Made by a program: the position numbers and the translations under genes
Source of the DNA: Lachnospiraceae bacterium
GTDB taxonomy: Bacteria; Bacillota; Clostridia; Lachnospirales; Lachnospiraceae
NCBI GenBank assembly: GCA_024693925.1
Contig: JAILKH010000131.1
Location: 1-52,139 of the forward strand
Direction: 5' to 3'
DNA: 52,139 nucleotides
Shown here: in pieces, positions 45,128 to 52,139 of the stretch
Position numbering within the stretch: position 1 is the first letter of the stretch
Layout of the letters: each line of letters begins with the position of its first letter
The notes under the pieces: model-generated
Seen by the model: only the letters and a program-made list of their open reading frames with translations
What the model was told of the DNA's origin: nothing
Database searches by the model: none

Positions 45128-45176
45128 AATAAATATGTGTGAGTTAAATTCGGAATTTGCGAAATAGAGGTTGTTT

Positions 45177-47510
45177 ATGTCCAAAATACATATTGATGAA
45201 GAATTCTATGAGGATGAAGTAAGGGAAGGCTTTTATATACCGGCATCCATAAAGCAGGCCTGGGGGGCTATGCTTTTGATCTATAACGAAATAGACAGGG
45301 TTTGCAATGAATTGAATATAAAGTATTTTGCCGATTGGGGAACATTGCTTGGAGCGATACGACATGGCGGATTTATTCCCTGGGATGATGATTTTGATCT
45401 GTGTATGTTAAGGGATGATTATGAACGTTTTATAAAGGAAGGGTTAAGCCGGCTTCCGGAAGGTTATGCTGTGTTTAATCTGGAAACCAAGCCAAGGCAC
45501 GATCAATTTATTGCAAATGTAGTGAGTAAAACCAGGATATGTTTTGATGAAGATCATCTTGAAAAATATCATGGTTTTCCGTATATTGCAGGGATAGATA
45601 TCTTTATTATTGATTATATAGATACTGATGAAAAAAAATATGAAATGATGAAAGACAAAGCCATGCATATCCTGTCAGTTTCCCAGGGCATAAATGATGG
45701 AACTTTGACCGGTTCATATCTGGAAAAGCGCCTCGAAATGCTGAAAGCTTCATTTGGGATAGAGGTACCTTCGGAACTTAGAGGAAATGAATTGCGCAGA
45801 TATCTGGATATGATGGCCGAAAAGCTGTTTGCATCTTTTGTTGATAAACGAAAACAAGCGGACCGAATAGTACAAATGATGCCCTGGGGATTGAAAAATA
45901 TTAAGGAAATGCCCAAATATTATTATTCAGAGATGGTCTATTTACCTTTTGAAAACGGTGAGGTGCCGGTTCCGCTGGTATATGAAGAAGCACTTAAGGT
46001 TCATTACGGTGATTATATGCAGTTAAATAAAAATGCCGGTGGTCATAATTATCCGTTTTTTGTAAAATCAAAAGCCCAGTTACAGGAAGTGTTGGATTTT
46101 GAACTTCCGGAATACAGAGTAAGTGCAAAAGAAGTTTTTGAGCATGAAAGGCAGAGAAAAGAAGATATAAAAAAGCAAAAAAAGGATACTTACCGGGATG
46201 TGGTACAAGATTGTCTCTCAATGATGAAAAATCTGCAGGAGGAGCTTAATAAGGGCAGGAATGAAGAAAAATGCTTGGAATTATGGCAACTGATCATAGA
46301 TTTGGGTAATTATATGGAGGCGGTTAAGGGGGAAGGATATGATATTGTGAAATTGCTGGAGGAGTATTGTGAGGAATTATATGCTCTGTCGCAAACCGGT
46401 ATTATTGCAGAAGGAGAGTCCGCTGAGAATTTCGGAAAGGCGGACGGATATGCTCCGGAAAACCTGAGGATTACCGGGCATATGCTGGAAAATATAGAGA
46501 AGAAGATAAAGAAACGAAGGGAAATTCTGTTTTTACCATATAAATTAAAGTATTTTAATACCATGAAATCCGCATATGAGGCCGCAATGAAGGATGAAGA
46601 TGCTGATGTATTTGTGGTTTTGTTACCGTATTATCATAAGGATTATAAGGGAAGGCTTATAAATATGCATTATGATGTATCGGAATGTCCCGGGGATTTA
46701 AATATAATTCATTATAATGAGTATGATATCAAATTAAGACACCCGGATATTATTGTGATTCAGAATCCGTATGATGAGCAGAATTTAGAGACATCGGTCC
46801 CGCCGTTCTTTTATAGTAAGGAGCTGCTTAAATATACTGATGAGCTCATTTATATTCCATGGTTTGAAACCTGTGATTTTACCAAAGAAGCGGAACGCGA
46901 ATATATAAATATGAGTAGTTATTGTACGGTTCCCGGAGTGTTGAATGCCGATAAGGTTATGGTGCAGTCCGAGGTTTTGAGGGAAACCTATATAAATAAG
47001 TTGTGTGAATTTACCGGAACCGGAACTCGGGAGGTCTGGGAAAAAAAAATCCTTGTAAAAGGAAGCAAAGATGATCCGTTATATTGTCCCGGGAATGATA
47101 GTGGAAATGCTTTAAATGATAAAGAAAAGGAAGATAAAATATTATTATATTATCCGGATGTAAGTAATATTATCCTGCATGGACAGAAGGCTTTGGATAA
47201 GTTAAGGTCGGTACTTAAGATTTTTGGTAATGATAACGGGAATCTGAAGTATATTCTGGTTAAAGGCTATAATGCCGAGGATATTTTGGAAGAATATGAC
47301 GGGGAATTATATGAGGCATATGTGAACCTTTTAAAGGAAGCTTACGACGGGGGATTGGTTGAGCTGGTTGAAGAAAGCAATGAGAGGACCGAGATTGACG
47401 GACTGATCAAACGCTGCTGCGCATATTACGGAGATAGCGGACGGATAGCACATATGTTCAGAAATGCGGGAAAGCCTGTTATGATTCAGAATTATGATAT
47501 TTCGGAATAA
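45177..47510 (+). CDS. Fusion: LicD phosphotransferase + TagB-like (CDP-glycerol glycerophosphotransferase-type) domain
   Basis: 777 residues. Residues ~30-310 are a LicD-family domain with the signature GTLLGAIRHGG and PWDDDFD (about 55-74); LicD enzymes move phosphocholine or similar phospho-groups from CDP carriers onto glycans. After a charged coiled linker (~310-480), residues ~490-777 match a GT-B-like domain annotated in Lachnospiraceae as CDP-glycerol glycerophosphotransferase (EILFLPYKLKYFNTMKSAYE, NPYDEQNLETSVPPFFYSKE, GKPVMIQN). One chain may therefore build and decorate a phosphate-linked wall polymer. No membrane helix. ATG 45177 lies 6 nt after GAGG; two codons upstream of it in the frame are not needed. 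Confidence 0.82.
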   Translation: MSKIHIDEEFYEDEVREGFYIPASIKQAWGAMLLIYNEIDRVCNELNIKYFADWGTLLGAIRHGGFIPWDDDFDLCMLRDDYERFIKEGLSRLPEGYAVFNLETKPRHDQFIANVVSKTRICFDEDHLEKYHGFPYIAGIDIFIIDYIDTDEKKYEMMKDKAMHILSVSQGINDGTLTGSYLEKRLEMLKASFGIEVPSELRGNELRRYLDMMAEKLFASFVDKRKQADRIVQMMPWGLKNIKEMPKYYYSEMVYLPFENGEVPVPLVYEEALKVHYGDYMQLNKNAGGHNYPFFVKSKAQLQEVLDFELPEYRVSAKEVFEHERQRKEDIKKQKKDTYRDVVQDCLSMMKNLQEELNKGRNEEKCLELWQLIIDLGNYMEAVKGEGYDIVKLLEEYCEELYALSQTGIIAEGESAENFGKADGYAPENLRITGHMLENIEKKIKKRREILFLPYKLKYFNTMKSAYEAAMKDEDADVFVVLLPYYHKDYKGRLINMHYDVSECPGDLNIIHYNEYDIKLRHPDIIVIQNPYDEQNLETSVPPFFYSKELLKYTDELIYIPWFETCDFTKEAEREYINMSSYCTVPGVLNADKVMVQSEVLRETYINKLCEFTGTGTREVWEKKILVKGSKDDPLYCPGNDSGNALNDKEKEDKILLYYPDVSNIILHGQKALDKLRSVLKIFGNDNGNLKYILVKGYNAEDILEEYDGELYEAYVNLLKEAYDGGLVELVEESNERTEIDGLIKRCCAYYGDSGRIAHMFRNAGKPVMIQNYDISE

Positions 47511-47571: not shown

Positions 47572-47600
47572 TTGAAAAGAAATACCGGTATTGTTATAAT
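47572..47600 (+). promoter_or_regulatory. Strong promoter of the exopolysaccharide control operon
   Basis: TTGAAA (47572-47577), exactly 17 bp, TATAAT (47595-47600), with TG one base before the -10 (extended form). The leader of about 120 nt contains a stem-loop around 47671-47698 (GCAGTCT with AGACCGC, one mismatch). Confidence 0.85.
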
Positions 47601-47725
47601 TCAGAAATGGTATTTTAAAGGAAGTTAGCGAGAAGTAACCGTGAAGAACTGAGAAGACAGAAAATAAAGCAGTCTGTTAAAAACGGAATAGACCGCAGAG
47701 AATCAAATTACGAGGTGAGATTATA

Positions 47726-48565
47726 TTGAGTTACGGATACAGAAGAGAAAGAAATAATATGCCTATGTGGGCATTGATCGTTTTGGTCAGTGTGGCAACT
47801 ATAGTATGTATAATAATGGTTGCGGTGATGTACATGGATAATAAAGGAATGTTGGGTAATAGTAACCCCGCTAAAACAGAGGATAATTCCATACAGGAAG
47901 TAAAAGGCGAAGCAAATGTTGTGCAAGTTGATGACGAAGCACTGGATAATATGATCCCAAAACATGATATTGTTGATATAAAAGCCTTACAGGGTGAACT
48001 CAATGGTGATGTGTATTCATGGCTTTACATTCCGGAAACCGGTATTGATGCTCCCGTGCTTCAGAAGGAAGATGATGTTATGTATTACGGAAGTCATAAC
48101 GAGAAGGGAGAAGAGGATGGTAAGGGTACCTTGTTCACTCAGTACATCAATTCAAAGGATTACAGCGATAACGTTACTGTGATCTACGGATACAACGATG
48201 GAAGCGATAAAGGTTTTTCAAAACTCAATCTTTTTGAAGATCCGGCCTTTTTAGGCAGTCATCCATATGTATATATATATAATGAAGAAAGTTTGCTCAT
48301 ATATAAGATATTTGCGGCATATGAATCGGATGATACTCACATTTTGATGTACTATGAGCCTAATGATGACAGTAATTATGAGAAATATCTGTCGGTTATT
48401 AAGGATAATATGGGTCTTAATGCAAATGTTATAGAGGAAGTCTGGCCGTCGGTTGATGATAAGATACTTACATTATCCACCAGGATACAGGGAAAGGAAG
48501 AAAACCGCTATCTGGTACAGGCAAAGCTGCATGAAACAGTCAAATTGTCGGAGCTGACAGAATAA
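47726..48565 (+). CDS. Catalytically degenerate class B sortase-like protein
   Basis: 279 residues: short basic N-terminus, one membrane helix (~15-37) and an extracytoplasmic sortase domain (~85-270). Class B features are in place: YSWLYIPETGIDAPVL, YYGSHNEKG, the KGTLF segment, and the C-terminal ENRYLVQAKL with the conserved Arg261. The catalytic His, normally in YGHN, is Y156 (YGYN, codon TAC at 48191), and the catalytic Cys, normally in LSTC, is R253 (LSTR, codon AGG at 48482). The frame is intact and conserved around both sites, so it looks like a maintained pseudoenzyme, perhaps a binding or signalling protein of the exopolysaccharide system. TTG start, 7 nt after GAGGTGAG. First gene of the operon. 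Confidence 0.85.
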   Translation: MSYGYRRERNNMPMWALIVLVSVATIVCIIMVAVMYMDNKGMLGNSNPAKTEDNSIQEVKGEANVVQVDDEALDNMIPKHDIVDIKALQGELNGDVYSWLYIPETGIDAPVLQKEDDVMYYGSHNEKGEEDGKGTLFTQYINSKDYSDNVTVIYGYNDGSDKGFSKLNLFEDPAFLGSHPYVYIYNEESLLIYKIFAAYESDDTHILMYYEPNDDSNYEKYLSVIKDNMGLNANVIEEVWPSVDDKILTLSTRIQGKEENRYLVQAKLHETVKLSELTE

Positions 48566-48601: not shown

Positions 48602-49339
48602 ATGAAATTTAAAGAAAAGAGGAGAATAATAGATATTCACAGTCATATTCTCCCGGGTATAGATGATGGATCAAACAGTTGGGAGACCTCTGTTGAAATG
48701 CTTAAGACGGCGGAAGCGGAGGGCATCACTGATATGATAGCTACTCCCCACTATAAGCCCGGACACCGAAATGCTCCGCCGCATGTGGTTAAAGAGCTGG
48801 CTGCCCGTTTGCAAAGTAAACTGAGAGAGCTTGATATAAATGTCAGAATCCATACCGGAAATGAAATAATGTACTTTAGTGAAGCAGCGGAAAAGCTTGA
48901 CCGGGGAGAGATTCTTACAATGTGTGACAGTGATTTTGTGTTGGTGGAATTTATGCCGGGTGATAATTTCAGGCATATATCGGGGAGTCTTGATGAATTA
49001 AGATATATGGGATATATTCCGATACTGGCCCACGTGGAAAGATATGAATGTATGATCTCGGAGCTTAAAAATGTGGAAGAGCTGGCAAGGCGGGATGTGA
49101 AGATGCAGATCAATGCAGCCAGTTATACAGGGGCCCTTGGTCATAAAGTAAAGAAGGCTGTTATGAAAATGGTGGATAACGGATATATAGATTATATAGG
49201 AACGGATTCGCATGATACAAAGCGAAGAGCGCCATATATGGCTAAATGTATGCAGATGCTTGATCGCCGTTACATAAGAGAAGATGTTGATGTGCTTACG
49301 TGTATAAATGCACTTGACATAATTGAATATAATCAATAA
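48602..49339 (+). CDS. cpsB: PHP-type tyrosine phosphatase CpsB/YwqE
   Basis: 245 residues; metal-dependent phosphatase that dephosphorylates the CpsD kinase. Motifs: DIHSHILPGIDDG (11-23), ATPHY, VLVEFMPG, LAHVERYE and GTDSHD, supplying His and Asp metal ligands. AAGGGAAAG precedes the ATG. It lies between the sortase-like gene and cpsC in the order cpsB-cpsC-cpsD known from streptococcal capsule loci. Confidence 0.94.
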   Translation: MKFKEKRRIIDIHSHILPGIDDGSNSWETSVEMLKTAEAEGITDMIATPHYKPGHRNAPPHVVKELAARLQSKLRELDINVRIHTGNEIMYFSEAAEKLDRGEILTMCDSDFVLVEFMPGDNFRHISGSLDELRYMGYIPILAHVERYECMISELKNVEELARRDVKMQINAASYTGALGHKVKKAVMKMVDNGYIDYIGTDSHDTKRRAPYMAKCMQMLDRRYIREDVDVLTCINALDIIEYNQ

Positions 49340-49388: not shown

Positions 49389-50378
49389 ATGGGAAACAGA
49401 GAAGAAGAGATAGAGATAGATCTGGCGGAAGTGCTTAGCTTTTTACTGCATTGGTTATGGCTTATATTTCTGAGTGCTTTTTTGTGCGGTACACTGGGTC
49501 TGCTTATAAGCGTTTTTGTTGTTTCACCTAAATATGAATCAACAACAAAGGTTTATATTTTGAATAAGCAGAATATTAATGGTAATATTTCTTATTCAGA
49601 TACTCAGTTGGCAACGCAGTTGACCAAAGACTATGAGGAGTTGATCACTTGCCGTAACGTGTTGGAAAGGGTTATTTCCGAGCTTAAGCTGGATGACAGT
49701 TATGAAACTCTTCAAAGCAGGATCACGGTAGCCAATGCATCCGATACACGTATTATCTCCATTACGGTTAAGGATGAGAATCCGGAAGAAGCCAGGCGTA
49801 TTGCAAATGAGGTAAGGGATGTTGCCAGCGCTCATATTACCGATGTTATGGATATAGAGGCCGTAAATGTGGTGGATGAGGCTAATCTGCCTGATATTGA
49901 TAAGCCTGCAGAGCCTTCGGTAATGAAGTACACTGCTATCGGTGGATTTATCGGTGCTTTTATCTGTATTGTATTCCTTATGGTAAAATATCTGGCGGAT
50001 GATACGATAAGAGTATCCGAAGATGTGGAAAAATATTTGGAATTATCAACCTTGGGATTGATTCCTGTTATGGAAGAGGAAGTTGAAAACAACAAAAAGA
50101 AGAAAAACAGGAATAAGAGAAAAGGAAGCGGACGGAAAAATACGGAATCCGCAGATGCGGAAAAAGATAATGGTTATGATATCGGAAAACTTAATGTATC
50201 CGACAGTAAAGTGAAAAACAAGAATATTTTTGGAAATAAGTATTCTGCCCAATCTATTAACTCAGCTATTCAGGTTGCGGATATTGATAGTCTGGATGAG
50301 GAAGTATCCGTACAGGACACGGAGGAGGGTAAGATAATAGAGCAGATGGAACAGGCTGAGAGTGAAACTGCCATATAA
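49389..50378 (+). CDS. cpsC: Wzz/CpsC polysaccharide co-polymerase with long cytoplasmic tail
   Basis: 329 residues. Two membrane helices (~23-45 and ~181-201) bracket an extracellular loop, with the Pro-containing segment PDIDKPAEPS before the second helix, as usual for chain-length regulators. The protein activates the CpsD kinase and sets polymer length. Unlike the ~230-residue norm it has about 125 further residues: a Lys/Arg-rich stretch (~235-250) followed by an acidic Ser/Asp/Glu tail, of unknown role, possibly contacting the kinase or the membrane. Confidence 0.92.
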   Translation: MGNREEEIEIDLAEVLSFLLHWLWLIFLSAFLCGTLGLLISVFVVSPKYESTTKVYILNKQNINGNISYSDTQLATQLTKDYEELITCRNVLERVISELKLDDSYETLQSRITVANASDTRIISITVKDENPEEARRIANEVRDVASAHITDVMDIEAVNVVDEANLPDIDKPAEPSVMKYTAIGGFIGAFICIVFLMVKYLADDTIRVSEDVEKYLELSTLGLIPVMEEEVENNKKKKNRNKRKGSGRKNTESADAEKDNGYDIGKLNVSDSKVKNKNIFGNKYSAQSINSAIQVADIDSLDEEVSVQDTEEGKIIEQMEQAESETAI

Positions 50379-50419: not shown

Positions 50420-51163
50420 ATGCAACAGATTGAAATCAAAATCGAGAAACATGATTTTCGAACCAATGAAGCATTTAAGACGCTGAGAACCAATATAGAG
50501 TTTGCGGGAGAGGATATTCAGATAATAGGTCTGACAAGTGCAACGCCCAATGAAGGAAAGTCGACAATATCTTTTGAACTTGCAAGATCATTTGCGGAAG
50601 GCGGTAAGAGAACACTTCTTATAGATGCCGATCTTAGAAAATCGGTTATGCGGTCCAGATATAAGATGGGGAAGGTAAGATACGGGCTCACTAATGTACT
50701 TGTCAAAAAAGTTGAAGTCGAAGATGCGATATGCGAAACGGACATACCGGATTTTCATATGATATTTGCAGGTCCTGTTCCGCCGAATCCCAGTGAATTG
50801 CTGGGGGGAAAATCTTTCAAAAGGATGATCGAATACGGCCGGGAGAATTATGATATTGTAATAATCGATGCTCCGCCTATCGGTTCGGTTATAGATGCCG
50901 CAGTTATCAGTAAGAAGTGTGACGGTATGATGATCGTTATAGAAAGCGGTGCGATAAGCTATCGGTTTGCCAGAAAAATGGTGGAACAGTTGAAGGTTGC
51001 CGATGCAAGGATACTGGGGGTTATATTAAATAAGGTAAATATGTCCGGTAAAGGATATTACGGAAAATATTACGGCAGATATTACGGCAGATATTACGGA
51101 AAATATTATGGAAAGTATTATGGAAATTATTACGGACATGGCGACGAGAATGATTCAGAGTAA
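50420..51163 (+). CDS. cpsD: Bacterial tyrosine kinase CpsD
   Basis: 247 residues; BY-kinase that autophosphorylates on a C-terminal tyrosine cluster and controls exopolysaccharide export. Walker A TPNEGKST (42-49), A' LLIDADLR (66-73), Walker B VIIDAPP (147-153); the N-terminal region has the EAFKTLRTN motif. The tail is seven near-perfect YYG(K/R/N) units (213-239), 14 tyrosines in pairs. Catalysis needs CpsC, encoded directly upstream, and is reversed by CpsB. Spacing of 41 bp to cpsC. AGGAT-type site before the ATG (GAGAAGGATTT). Confidence 0.95.
   Translation: MQQIEIKIEKHDFRTNEAFKTLRTNIEFAGEDIQIIGLTSATPNEGKSTISFELARSFAEGGKRTLLIDADLRKSVMRSRYKMGKVRYGLTNVLVKKVEVEDAICETDIPDFHMIFAGPVPPNPSELLGGKSFKRMIEYGRENYDIVIIDAPPIGSVIDAAVISKKCDGMMIVIESGAISYRFARKMVEQLKVADARILGVILNKVNMSGKGYYGKYYGRYYGRYYGKYYGKYYGNYYGHGDENDSE
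51056..51136 (+). repeat. 12-bp repeats coding the YYG(K/R) tail of CpsD
   Basis: Seven consecutive units of the type TATTACGG(A/C)A(A/G)A encode the tetrapeptide repeat. Synonymous differences (TAC/TAT, GGA/GGC) separate units, so the array is not brand new, but copy number could change by slippage in frame. Confidence 0.85.
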
Positions 51164-51201: not shown

Positions 51202-52139
51202 ATGAGTAGAAAAGTTGTATCCAGAAGTGAATTTATAATTAAAAGATTACTTATTATATTGGGGTGCATAATATCCGTCCTGGTTATATTGGTAGCTGTT
51301 GCCAAAATTGTTACCATCATAGGCAGGAACAAACTGGAGAAAAATGCCAATACCCAGGGTCCGGTAATGACAGATGATGCCAGGTCTTCCGAAAAGATCG
51401 AAGGTATATATGAAAGTGACTGGCAGGAAGGCTGGATCAGTTTTAACGATAAAATATACGAATATAATAAGGACATAAGAACCTTTCTTGTATTGGGCAT
51501 AGATGATGCCCATCAAGGCGGGGATTCCAAGTATTTTGAAATGACAGACGGCGGTCAGTCGGACGGTATTTTTCTTGTAATATTGAATCCTCATGACAAG
51601 ACGATCAAGGTCATGGCTGTTAATCGTGATACGCAGGTGGATGTTCTTATGGTAGGTGTGGGAGAAGACGGTAAGGATATTGTTGCCAAATCCCAGATAA
51701 CCAACCAGCATGCTTTTGGCGGCGGAGGAGAGTACAGCTGTGAACTTACCAGGGATGCGGTAAGTAAATTATTATATGAAATACCGATCCATGGATATGT
51801 GGCCGTTAATTATAAAGCTATACCTGCGATAAATGATTCGGTGGGCGGAGTGACGTTGACCCTGCCGGAAGATATGGATGTTACGGAAATCAATAAGAAG
51901 TGGACACCCGGTTCGCAGATTACTTTGATGGGTAAGGATGCATATAATTTTGTCCATTACAGGAATGTGGATGTATTTGAAAGCCAGAGGAGCAGGTTGG
52001 CCAGACAGAAGCTTTATCTTAAAAATTTTATTAATCAGACAAAGGCAAAGACAAAGGAAGATATTACTTTGCCTGTTACGATATTCAATAAAATCAAAAA
52101 TGATGTAGTAACGGATCTTACCGTTGATTCAATAAGTTA
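51202..52139 (+). CDS. LytR-CpsA-Psr (LCP) family protein, 3' end outside the window
   Basis: The first 312 residues are visible. Short basic N-terminus, one membrane helix (~14-40), then the extracellular LCP domain from ~92: FLVLGID, GQSDGIFLVILNP (D121), AVNRDTQVD (R142, D143), VNYKAIPAIND, and FVHYRNVDVFESQRSRLARQ with the conserved Arg cluster. LCP enzymes move glycans from undecaprenyl phosphate to peptidoglycan, so it probably attaches the polymer made under CpsBCD control. The site before ATG 51202 is weak (AAGAAGATTTT). The frame is open to the window end. Confidence 0.93.
   Translation, partial: MSRKVVSRSEFIIKRLLIILGCIISVLVILVAVAKIVTIIGRNKLEKNANTQGPVMTDDARSSEKIEGIYESDWQEGWISFNDKIYEYNKDIRTFLVLGIDDAHQGGDSKYFEMTDGGQSDGIFLVILNPHDKTIKVMAVNRDTQVDVLMVGVGEDGKDIVAKSQITNQHAFGGGGEYSCELTRDAVSKLLYEIPIHGYVAVNYKAIPAINDSVGGVTLTLPEDMDVTEINKKWTPGSQITLMGKDAYNFVHYRNVDVFESQRSRLARQKLYLKNFINQTKAKTKEDITLPVTIFNKIKNDVVTDLTVDSIS

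What the first reader, a model, noticed from the sequence alone, without database searches (positions are those of the whole stretch)
47726..48565. Pseudo-sortase heading an exopolysaccharide tyrosine-kinase operon
The protein keeps the class B sortase fold and the conserved Arg261, but catalytic His is Tyr156 and catalytic Cys is Arg253. Both are clean substitutions in an intact frame, with good initiation signals and a strong promoter. Loss of both nucleophile and base excludes transpeptidation, while fold preservation implies selection for another job: binding a wall peptide, acting as a sensor, or being an inactive partner for CpsC or the LCP enzyme. I know of no described role for a dead sortase in a CpsBCD system.
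Basis: partly seen in the sequence, partly recalled or inferred. Interest (0 to 1): 0.75.

Follow-up and report, generated by a model that had tools for sequence, protein, structure and literature searches.

The report
Dead sortase paired with capsule-attachment enzyme
In a rumen bacterium, a protein-anchoring enzyme that has lost its catalytic residues is kept by selection beside the enzyme that attaches surface polysaccharide, and in such loci the small secreted neighbour protein lacks the tag a working enzyme would cut, so the dead enzyme probably acts as a holder or guide.

Summary
Confirmed: 47726-48565 encodes a class B sortase fold with Tyr156 for His and Arg253 for Cys; its extracellular domain has no Cys. 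It is not recent decay. All 11 genes of its clade (10 genomes of the genus) lack the Cys (Gly, Arg, His or Tyr there), close pairs show dN/dS near 0.1, and both catalytic columns vary freely while Arg261 is invariant. The loss is fixed, not the residues. Constant neighbours are not CpsBCD (complete in 5 of 11 loci) but the LCP glycopolymer transferase and a small secreted protein, X (11 of 11 each; the window's X lies on another contig that also begins with the end of this LCP gene). The same sortase-LCP-X module with an intact sortase occurs elsewhere in Lachnospiraceae; there X mostly carries a sorting signal (30 of 41 loci; 5 have X without a full signal, 6 no clear X). Beside dead sortases X has none (0 of 46). 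Mediterraneibacter gnavus SrtB4, a sortase in such a cluster, is needed for capsule display; its catalytic residues I could not see. Best reading: a pseudosortase that docks X and/or LCP without catalysis during surface-polysaccharide attachment. The mechanism is inferred; the number of independent losses is unresolved.

The parts
47572..47600 (+). promoter-like TTGAAA-17-TATAAT with extended -10
   Evidence: consensus scan; not evidence of function
47713..47719 (+). AGGTGAG, likely ribosome-binding site of the TTG start at 47726
   Evidence: read from the sequence
47726..48565 (+). pseudosortase, class B fold, 279 aa
47765..47842 (+). predicted membrane helix, residues 14-39, holding the only Cys (28)
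   Evidence: AF2 model
48191..48193 (+). Tyr156 at the catalytic His position
48482..48484 (+). Arg253 at the catalytic Cys position
48506..48508 (+). Arg261, the conserved catalytic Arg, kept
48602..49339 (+). CpsB/CapC-type phosphatase
   Evidence: PF19567 E 6.9e-83
49389..50378 (+). CpsC, Wzz-type chain-length protein
   Evidence: PF02706 E 6.4e-17, TIGR01006 E 3.9e-59
50420..51163 (+). CpsD, tyrosine autokinase
   Evidence: TIGR01007 231.3 bits over cut-off 108.05
51202..52139 (+). LCP glycopolymer transferase, cut by the end of the contig; its C-terminal tail and the downstream secreted protein X (163 aa, no sorting signal) lie at the end of contig C67 of the same genome (G000:C67:33969-34457, minus strand)
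   Evidence: PF03816 E 1.8e-20

Best explanation
The gene encodes a conserved pseudosortase: a membrane-anchored class B sortase fold that cannot cleave or transpeptidate and now works by binding. Shown: dead clades are conserved, under purifying selection, and always linked here to an LCP glycopolymer transferase and, wherever it could be found, to a small secreted protein X that lacks a sorting signal. Inferred: the module descends from a live one in which LCP loaded polysaccharide on X and/or on peptidoglycan and the sortase anchored X to the wall. In the derived form the sortase fold docks X (perhaps its new clade-specific C-terminal tail) and/or LCP at the membrane, so that the polysaccharide made by the cps locus is attached and kept at the surface without the covalent sortase step.
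For: Cys absent in 11 of 11 clade-A genes (G4 R3 H2 Y2), His position H3 S3 T2 R2 Y1, Arg261 in 11 of 11; catalytic columns at the 94th and 84th percentile of variability in residues 88-268, against 37 of 37 invariant H, C and R in intact LCP-linked rows. dN/dS 0.056-0.314 in 10 pairs of dead genes. Fold: mean pLDDT 83.0, the best 19 PDB hits are SrtB structures, 5b23 TM 0.87 by target length. LCP and X in 11 of 11 clade-A loci, CpsBCD complete in 5. X with a sorting signal: 0 of 46 judged dead loci, 30 of 41 live loci. X of dead groups is related to X of live loci (hhalign; 0 of 60 column shuffles reach the observed E for groups A, B, C, C' and g37). SrtB4, LCP and phosphatase mutants of the M. 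gnavus capsule cluster share one phenotype, loss of capsule display (PMC13121745). Precedents: A. oris LcpA glycosylates GspA, which a sortase then anchors (PMC6381275); SipA, a signal-peptidase fold without catalytic residues, is essential for pilus assembly (PMC4049620 abstract); Cys-to-Ala sortase A has been crystallised with sorting peptides bound (PDB titles).
Against: No binding, expression or phenotype is shown for any dead member. If the groove still binds a sorting peptide, X should have kept one, yet it has not; the tail idea rests on clade-specific conserved ends only. Events behind the Cys/signal association are few: 3 changes of state on the best trees, one origin of all dead rows not rejected (AU p 0.283 for the LCP-linked dead rows and 0.26 for all dead rows), 1-2 independent pairs. 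Among 41 live loci 5 have X without a full signal and 6 have no clear X. X of four clade-A loci (L043, L044, L046, L047) is not linked to live X directly (2 of 60 shuffles reach it); only to other clade-A X (E 4.2e-05). The M. gnavus authors report nearby proteins with sorting signals for the srtB homologues as a group, which would fit a live SrtB4.
Confidence: 0.5

Rival explanations
1. Wall-side adaptor: the sortase fold keeps its second-substrate site and binds nascent peptidoglycan or lipid II, placing LCP at its acceptor; X is incidental.
For: LCP is linked in every dead row of the A, B, C, C' and g37 groups; the catalytic Arg is invariant in A and B.
Against: Arg is replaced by Gln (Glu once) in C and C'; X is next to the pair in every dead locus but one (L303), which an X-free role does not predict.
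Confidence: 0.2
2. Sensor or regulatory subunit of the CpsB-C-D phosphorelay.
For: It heads the CpsBCD operon in the window and in 4 further clade-A loci.
Against: In 4 of 11 clade-A loci there is no CpsB, C or D between it and LCP, and in 2 CpsB is missing there (they may lie elsewhere in those genomes); it has one membrane helix and only about 13 residues before it.
Confidence: 0.1
3. Shifted or new catalysis: another residue does a sortase-like reaction. In clade B a Cys sits one residue after the old position (Thr-His-Cys in 9 of 9).
For: Clade B keeps His-Cys invariant.
Against: In clade A the extracellular domain has no Cys in 9 of 11 members; catalytic positions vary freely; in clade B the catalytic His is lost in 4 of 9.
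Confidence: 0.07
4. Relic: a decaying gene kept by operon position.
For: Both catalytic residues are gone.
Against: dN/dS about 0.1 in dead pairs, intact frames in 44 distinct LCP-linked dead genes plus the window's, deep divergence between dead groups, invariant core residues.
Confidence: 0.04

Closest known systems
Class B sortases (SrtB; S. aureus, C. perfringens, C. difficile, L. monocytogenes)
   Same: fold, N-terminal membrane anchor, Arg of the active site; best sequence and structure hits
   Different: no catalytic His or Cys, TIGR03064 below cut-off, linked substrate-like protein lacks a sorting signal
SrtB4 (RGna_12035) capsule cluster of Mediterraneibacter gnavus (PMC13121745; passages and sections 11 and 15 seen)
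   Same: sortase beside an LCP gene in a cluster with BY-kinase and phosphatase; needed for capsule display
   Different: its catalytic residues are not given in the text I saw, and I did not find that genome; by locus tags the order is LCP then sortase, as in clade C, which live loci also show (L169)
LcpA-GspA-SrtA of Actinomyces oris (PMC6381275; abstract and discussion seen)
   Same: LCP enzyme, a secreted protein and a sortase in one pathway
   Different: there the sortase is the active housekeeping SrtA and GspA has a sorting signal
SipA of Streptococcus pyogenes pili (PMC4049620; abstract seen)
   Same: a catalytically dead processing-enzyme fold with kept peptide cleft, essential for surface assembly
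   Different: signal peptidase fold, pili instead of polysaccharide

Membership tests
class B sortase (as enzyme) | sortase beta-barrel fold | tested here: met
class B sortase (as enzyme) | TIGR03064 equivalog cut-off | tested here: not met
   111.8 of 153.75 bits
class B sortase (as enzyme) | catalytic His | tested here: not met
   Tyr156
class B sortase (as enzyme) | catalytic Cys | tested here: not met
   Arg253; no Cys outside the membrane helix
class B sortase (as enzyme) | catalytic Arg | tested here: met
   Arg261, 11 of 11 in clade A
class B sortase (as enzyme) | linked substrate with sorting signal | tested here: not met
   X of the window's genome ends ITKAP without motif or C-terminal helix; only the linked X was examined, not all proteins of the genome
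LCP glycosylation pathway of the A. oris LcpA-GspA type | LCP enzyme linked to a secreted protein | tested here: met
LCP glycosylation pathway of the A. oris LcpA-GspA type | transfer of glycan to the protein | not testable with these tools
   needs biochemistry
SipA-like non-catalytic assembly factor | catalytic residues lost, fold kept, gene conserved | tested here: met
SipA-like non-catalytic assembly factor | required for surface assembly | not testable with these tools
   M. gnavus SrtB4 result is the nearest, catalytic state unseen

The most novel reading that the evidence does not exclude
A family of pseudosortases acts as the dedicated receptor that couples LCP glycopolymer transfer to a secreted carrier protein X: capsule is attached to, or guided by, a protein, and in the pseudosortase lineages the cleavable sorting signal of X has been replaced by a free C-terminal tail read by the dead sortase groove.
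Probability: 0.25. Interest if true: 0.85.

Novelty: new variant of a known kind. Interest (0 to 1): 0.7.

Why it matters
Sortases are treated as enzymes first, and sortase genes are routinely annotated as active and paired with sorting-signal substrates. Here several conserved groups of Lachnospiraceae keep the fold without the chemistry, always beside an LCP enzyme and a secreted protein that lacks the signal. That gives a clean natural experiment on how Gram-positive gut and rumen bacteria attach capsule, and makes a concrete question testable: does the sortase of a capsule cluster act by catalysis or by binding?

Tried and rejected
Rejected: recent strain decay (all 10 other clade-A genes lack Cys, dN/dS near 0.1); another His/Cys pair (no Cys outside the membrane helix in the window protein); CpsBCD as the defining partner.

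Led nowhere or stayed open. (1) The first genome-contig scan with the single protein found no relative; the second, with alignment A1, gave 37 loci. (2) I tried to reach the M. gnavus genome to read SrtB4: searches for the sialidase N-terminal domain PF02973 (recalled as a mark of that species) in the genera of G753 (3 of 77 genomes, one over cut-off), G751 (0 of 37) and G061 (2 of 79, none over cut-off) gave weak, short matches inside long frames, which I took not to be M. gnavus without testing them further. (3) The fold of X (clade C, pLDDT 72.9) has no PDB match at E 0.001 or better; ankyrin ZU5-type and FIIND/GAIN-type hits are weak leads only. (4) The tree does not settle how many times catalysis was lost. 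(5) Searches of print for pseudosortase and like terms found nothing on such a protein; only the open PubMed Central library is covered, and no supplement could be read.

Rows dropped or missed: L104 is the same gene as L046 and was left out of counts; sortase frames under 200 aa were not tabulated; in L119, L128, L159, L173 and L217 and L302 my gene caller returned no sortase row; one search cut proteins to their last 330 residues; one search left out 26 rows or so of near copies, long branches and the genome's other sortases (93 rows kept). Loci L158-L217 are the best-scoring hits, whose list was cut and whose profile holds dead sequences, so the dead/live ratio is no frequency. Near copies remain in the counts (for example L102/L103, L107/L108, L166/L167, L203/L206, L111/L115, L205/L207, L213/L215). 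Three script hits for a sorting signal beside dead sortases (L175, L176, L215: LPTAEIR inside the last beta strands, no basic tail after a helix) were set to absent by eye, L184 was set to present by eye. A cruder rule also flagged L113 and, two to five genes away, L183; the stricter one flags L113 and L178 at genes five away, none adjacent.

Full report
1. Window 47726-48565(+) is an intact 279-aa frame with a class B sortase fold: PF04203 over its cut-off, TIGR03064 E 3e-32 though under its cut-off; an AF2 model with mean pLDDT 83.0 and pTM 0.71, whose 19 best PDB matches are SrtB structures. The catalytic His is Tyr156, the catalytic Cys Arg253, Arg261 is kept. The one Cys of the protein lies in the membrane helix. 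The genome's six other sortase places keep His and Cys.

2. It is a conserved pseudoenzyme, not decay. Search of 61 genomes and then of 37 genomes of the genus gives a clade A of 11 genes in 10 genomes, 45-51% identical to the window protein; a twelfth (L096, Cys position Gly) came from named records without usable context. In the 11, the Cys position is Gly 4, Arg 3, His 2, Tyr 2; the His position His 3, Ser 3, Thr 2, Arg 2, Tyr 1; Arg261 is invariant. The two positions rank at the 84th and 94th percentile of variability within residues 88-268. Ten pairs of dead genes have dN/dS 0.056-0.314, most near 0.1; two pairs of live genes that could be computed give 0.034 and 0.113, two more were saturated.

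3. The constant partners are LCP and X. Clade-A loci run pseudosortase-(CpsB)-(CpsC-CpsD)-LCP-X. CpsB, C and D all stand between in 5 of 11 (window, L043, L044, L046, L047), CpsC and D in 2 (L041, L042), none in 4 (L038, L039, L040, L045); LCP and X follow in 11 of 11. The window's contig stops inside LCP. The end of contig C67 of the same genome holds a LCP C-terminal tail and then X, 163 aa, signal peptide, ending ITKAP, no sorting signal; a few codons are missing between the contigs and no overlap was found, so that they adjoin is an inference from gene order.

4. Other dead groups. Clade B, nine genes in nine further genomes of the same genus, has Thr-His-Cys, with His at the old Cys position and Cys one later, invariant, and the catalytic His kept in 5 of 9; order pseudosortase-LCP-X-CpsB-CpsC and, where in view, CpsD. 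No genome of the 37 carries A and B (10 and 9; chance of no overlap 0.038). Clade C (10 genes, named Lachnospiraceae and related MAGs) and C' (13 genes, genus g26) have LCP-pseudosortase-X order, no Cys, no His, Gln for Arg (Glu once), and clade C a Gly-Cys lipobox-like start in 10 of 10. Genus g37 has Cys replaced by His (L191, L197, L299, L303) or Gly (L304). A further dead group, L053, L055, L058, is not linked to LCP.

5. The live module. The same pair occurs with intact His, Cys and Arg (37 of 37 rows), among them L102, L105 and L107, 31-34% identical to the window protein. There the neighbour X mostly ends in SPKTG, SPRTG, APKTG or a like motif, a hydrophobic stretch and basic residues: 30 of 41 live LCP-linked loci (27 by script, L184 by eye, L305 and L306). 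Five have X without a full signal (L166 and L167 end in SPKTGN, L204 in APKTGEF, L203 and L206 show none) and six have no clear X (L163 twice, L186, L196, L300, L301). Beside dead LCP-linked sortases X was found in 47 (44, the window's, L299, L304) and not in L303; one X (L208) is cut by the contig end; of the 46 judged none has a sorting signal. The X proteins are related by profile comparison: against live X the observed E beats all 60 column shuffles for groups A, B, C, C' and g37, with E from 8e-4 (A) to 2e-10 (g37), while the four A loci L043, L044, L046, L047 do not by themselves (2 of 60 reach it); LCP and Cps profiles give E 0.42-0.81.

6. How strong is the association? Counts of genes overstate it. 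The dead rows fall into well supported groups (A, B, C with C', the g37 trio and the LCP-free trio), but the deep forks are weak: the best trees need three changes of state, one origin of the LCP-linked dead rows is not rejected (AU p 0.283; all dead rows 0.26), and only one or two independent pairs can be drawn. Within g37 the pattern recurs (dead X 0 of 4 with signal, live X 2 of 2), which is the nearest to a second, separate case.

7. Mechanism. A. oris LcpA glycosylates GspA before a sortase anchors it (PMC6381275: abstract and discussion). By analogy the live Lachnospiraceae module may load polysaccharide on X and anchor X; this is inference. In M. gnavus a deletion of srtB4, complemented, and mutants of the LCP and phosphatase genes of that cluster lose capsule display (PMC13121745: passages and sections 11 and 15). 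Its main text holds none of the words cysteine, catalytic or active site, and it says that sortases of this strain have nearby proteins with sorting signals, so SrtB4 may be live or dead. For the dead form I propose docking of X and/or LCP. A Cys-less sortase can hold its peptide (titles of C208A sortase A complexes), and a dead processing fold as assembly factor has a precedent in SipA (PMC4049620 abstract). A tail as ligand is suggested by conserved ends of X: LH in 9 of 9 clade B; AP, with or without one basic residue, in 7 of 7 of the larger A subgroup; VGNQ with or without Arg in 4 of 4 of the other; AP in 3 of 3 of the g37 trio. Clades C and C' show no such common end.

8. Verdict. The dead sortase is real, old and selected. 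It defines pseudosortases tied to LCP and a secreted protein without a sorting signal. I found no description in print with the searches. I call it a new variant of a known kind (pseudoenzyme in surface assembly). The function is inferred, at even odds.

Noticed in passing
L053:7040-7813, L055:11267-12046, L058:1438-2226: A further group of dead sortases (no Cys, no His, Arg mostly lost) in three genomes of the genus, not linked to LCP; neighbours include DUF5067, MotA/ExbB-like, OmpA-domain and WecG-type proteins.
   Followed up: partly
A5 columns of L109-L118: Clade C pseudosortases start with a lipobox-like Gly-Cys (10 of 10), so they are probably lipoproteins instead of having the uncleaved membrane helix of clade A.
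   Followed up: no
L048-L052, L054, L056, L057, L059: Clade B pseudosortases have further invariant cysteines besides Thr-His-Cys (columns C98, C119, C204, C260 of L048), perhaps disulfides.
   Followed up: no
L166, L167, L204: Live sortase, but X stops right after SPKTGN or APKTGEF with no membrane stretch.
   Followed up: no
G983:C1:4384872-4385657, G368:C1:744619-745404, G334:C118:129761-130531 and others: Sortase matches inside open frames of about 1650 residues, possible sortase fusion proteins.
   Followed up: no
window 45171-47510: 779-aa protein with an N-terminal LicD domain and a long unassigned C-terminal part just upstream of the operon.
   Followed up: no
L112:10929-11492 (X of clade C): AF2 model of X is mostly beta; weak Foldseek matches to ankyrin ZU5-type and FIIND/GAIN-type domains, none at E 0.001 or better.
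   Followed up: partly
L175, L183 and other g26 loci, L191, L197: A 150-175 aa protein with an N-terminal membrane stretch precedes LCP in g26 and g37 loci.
   Followed up: no
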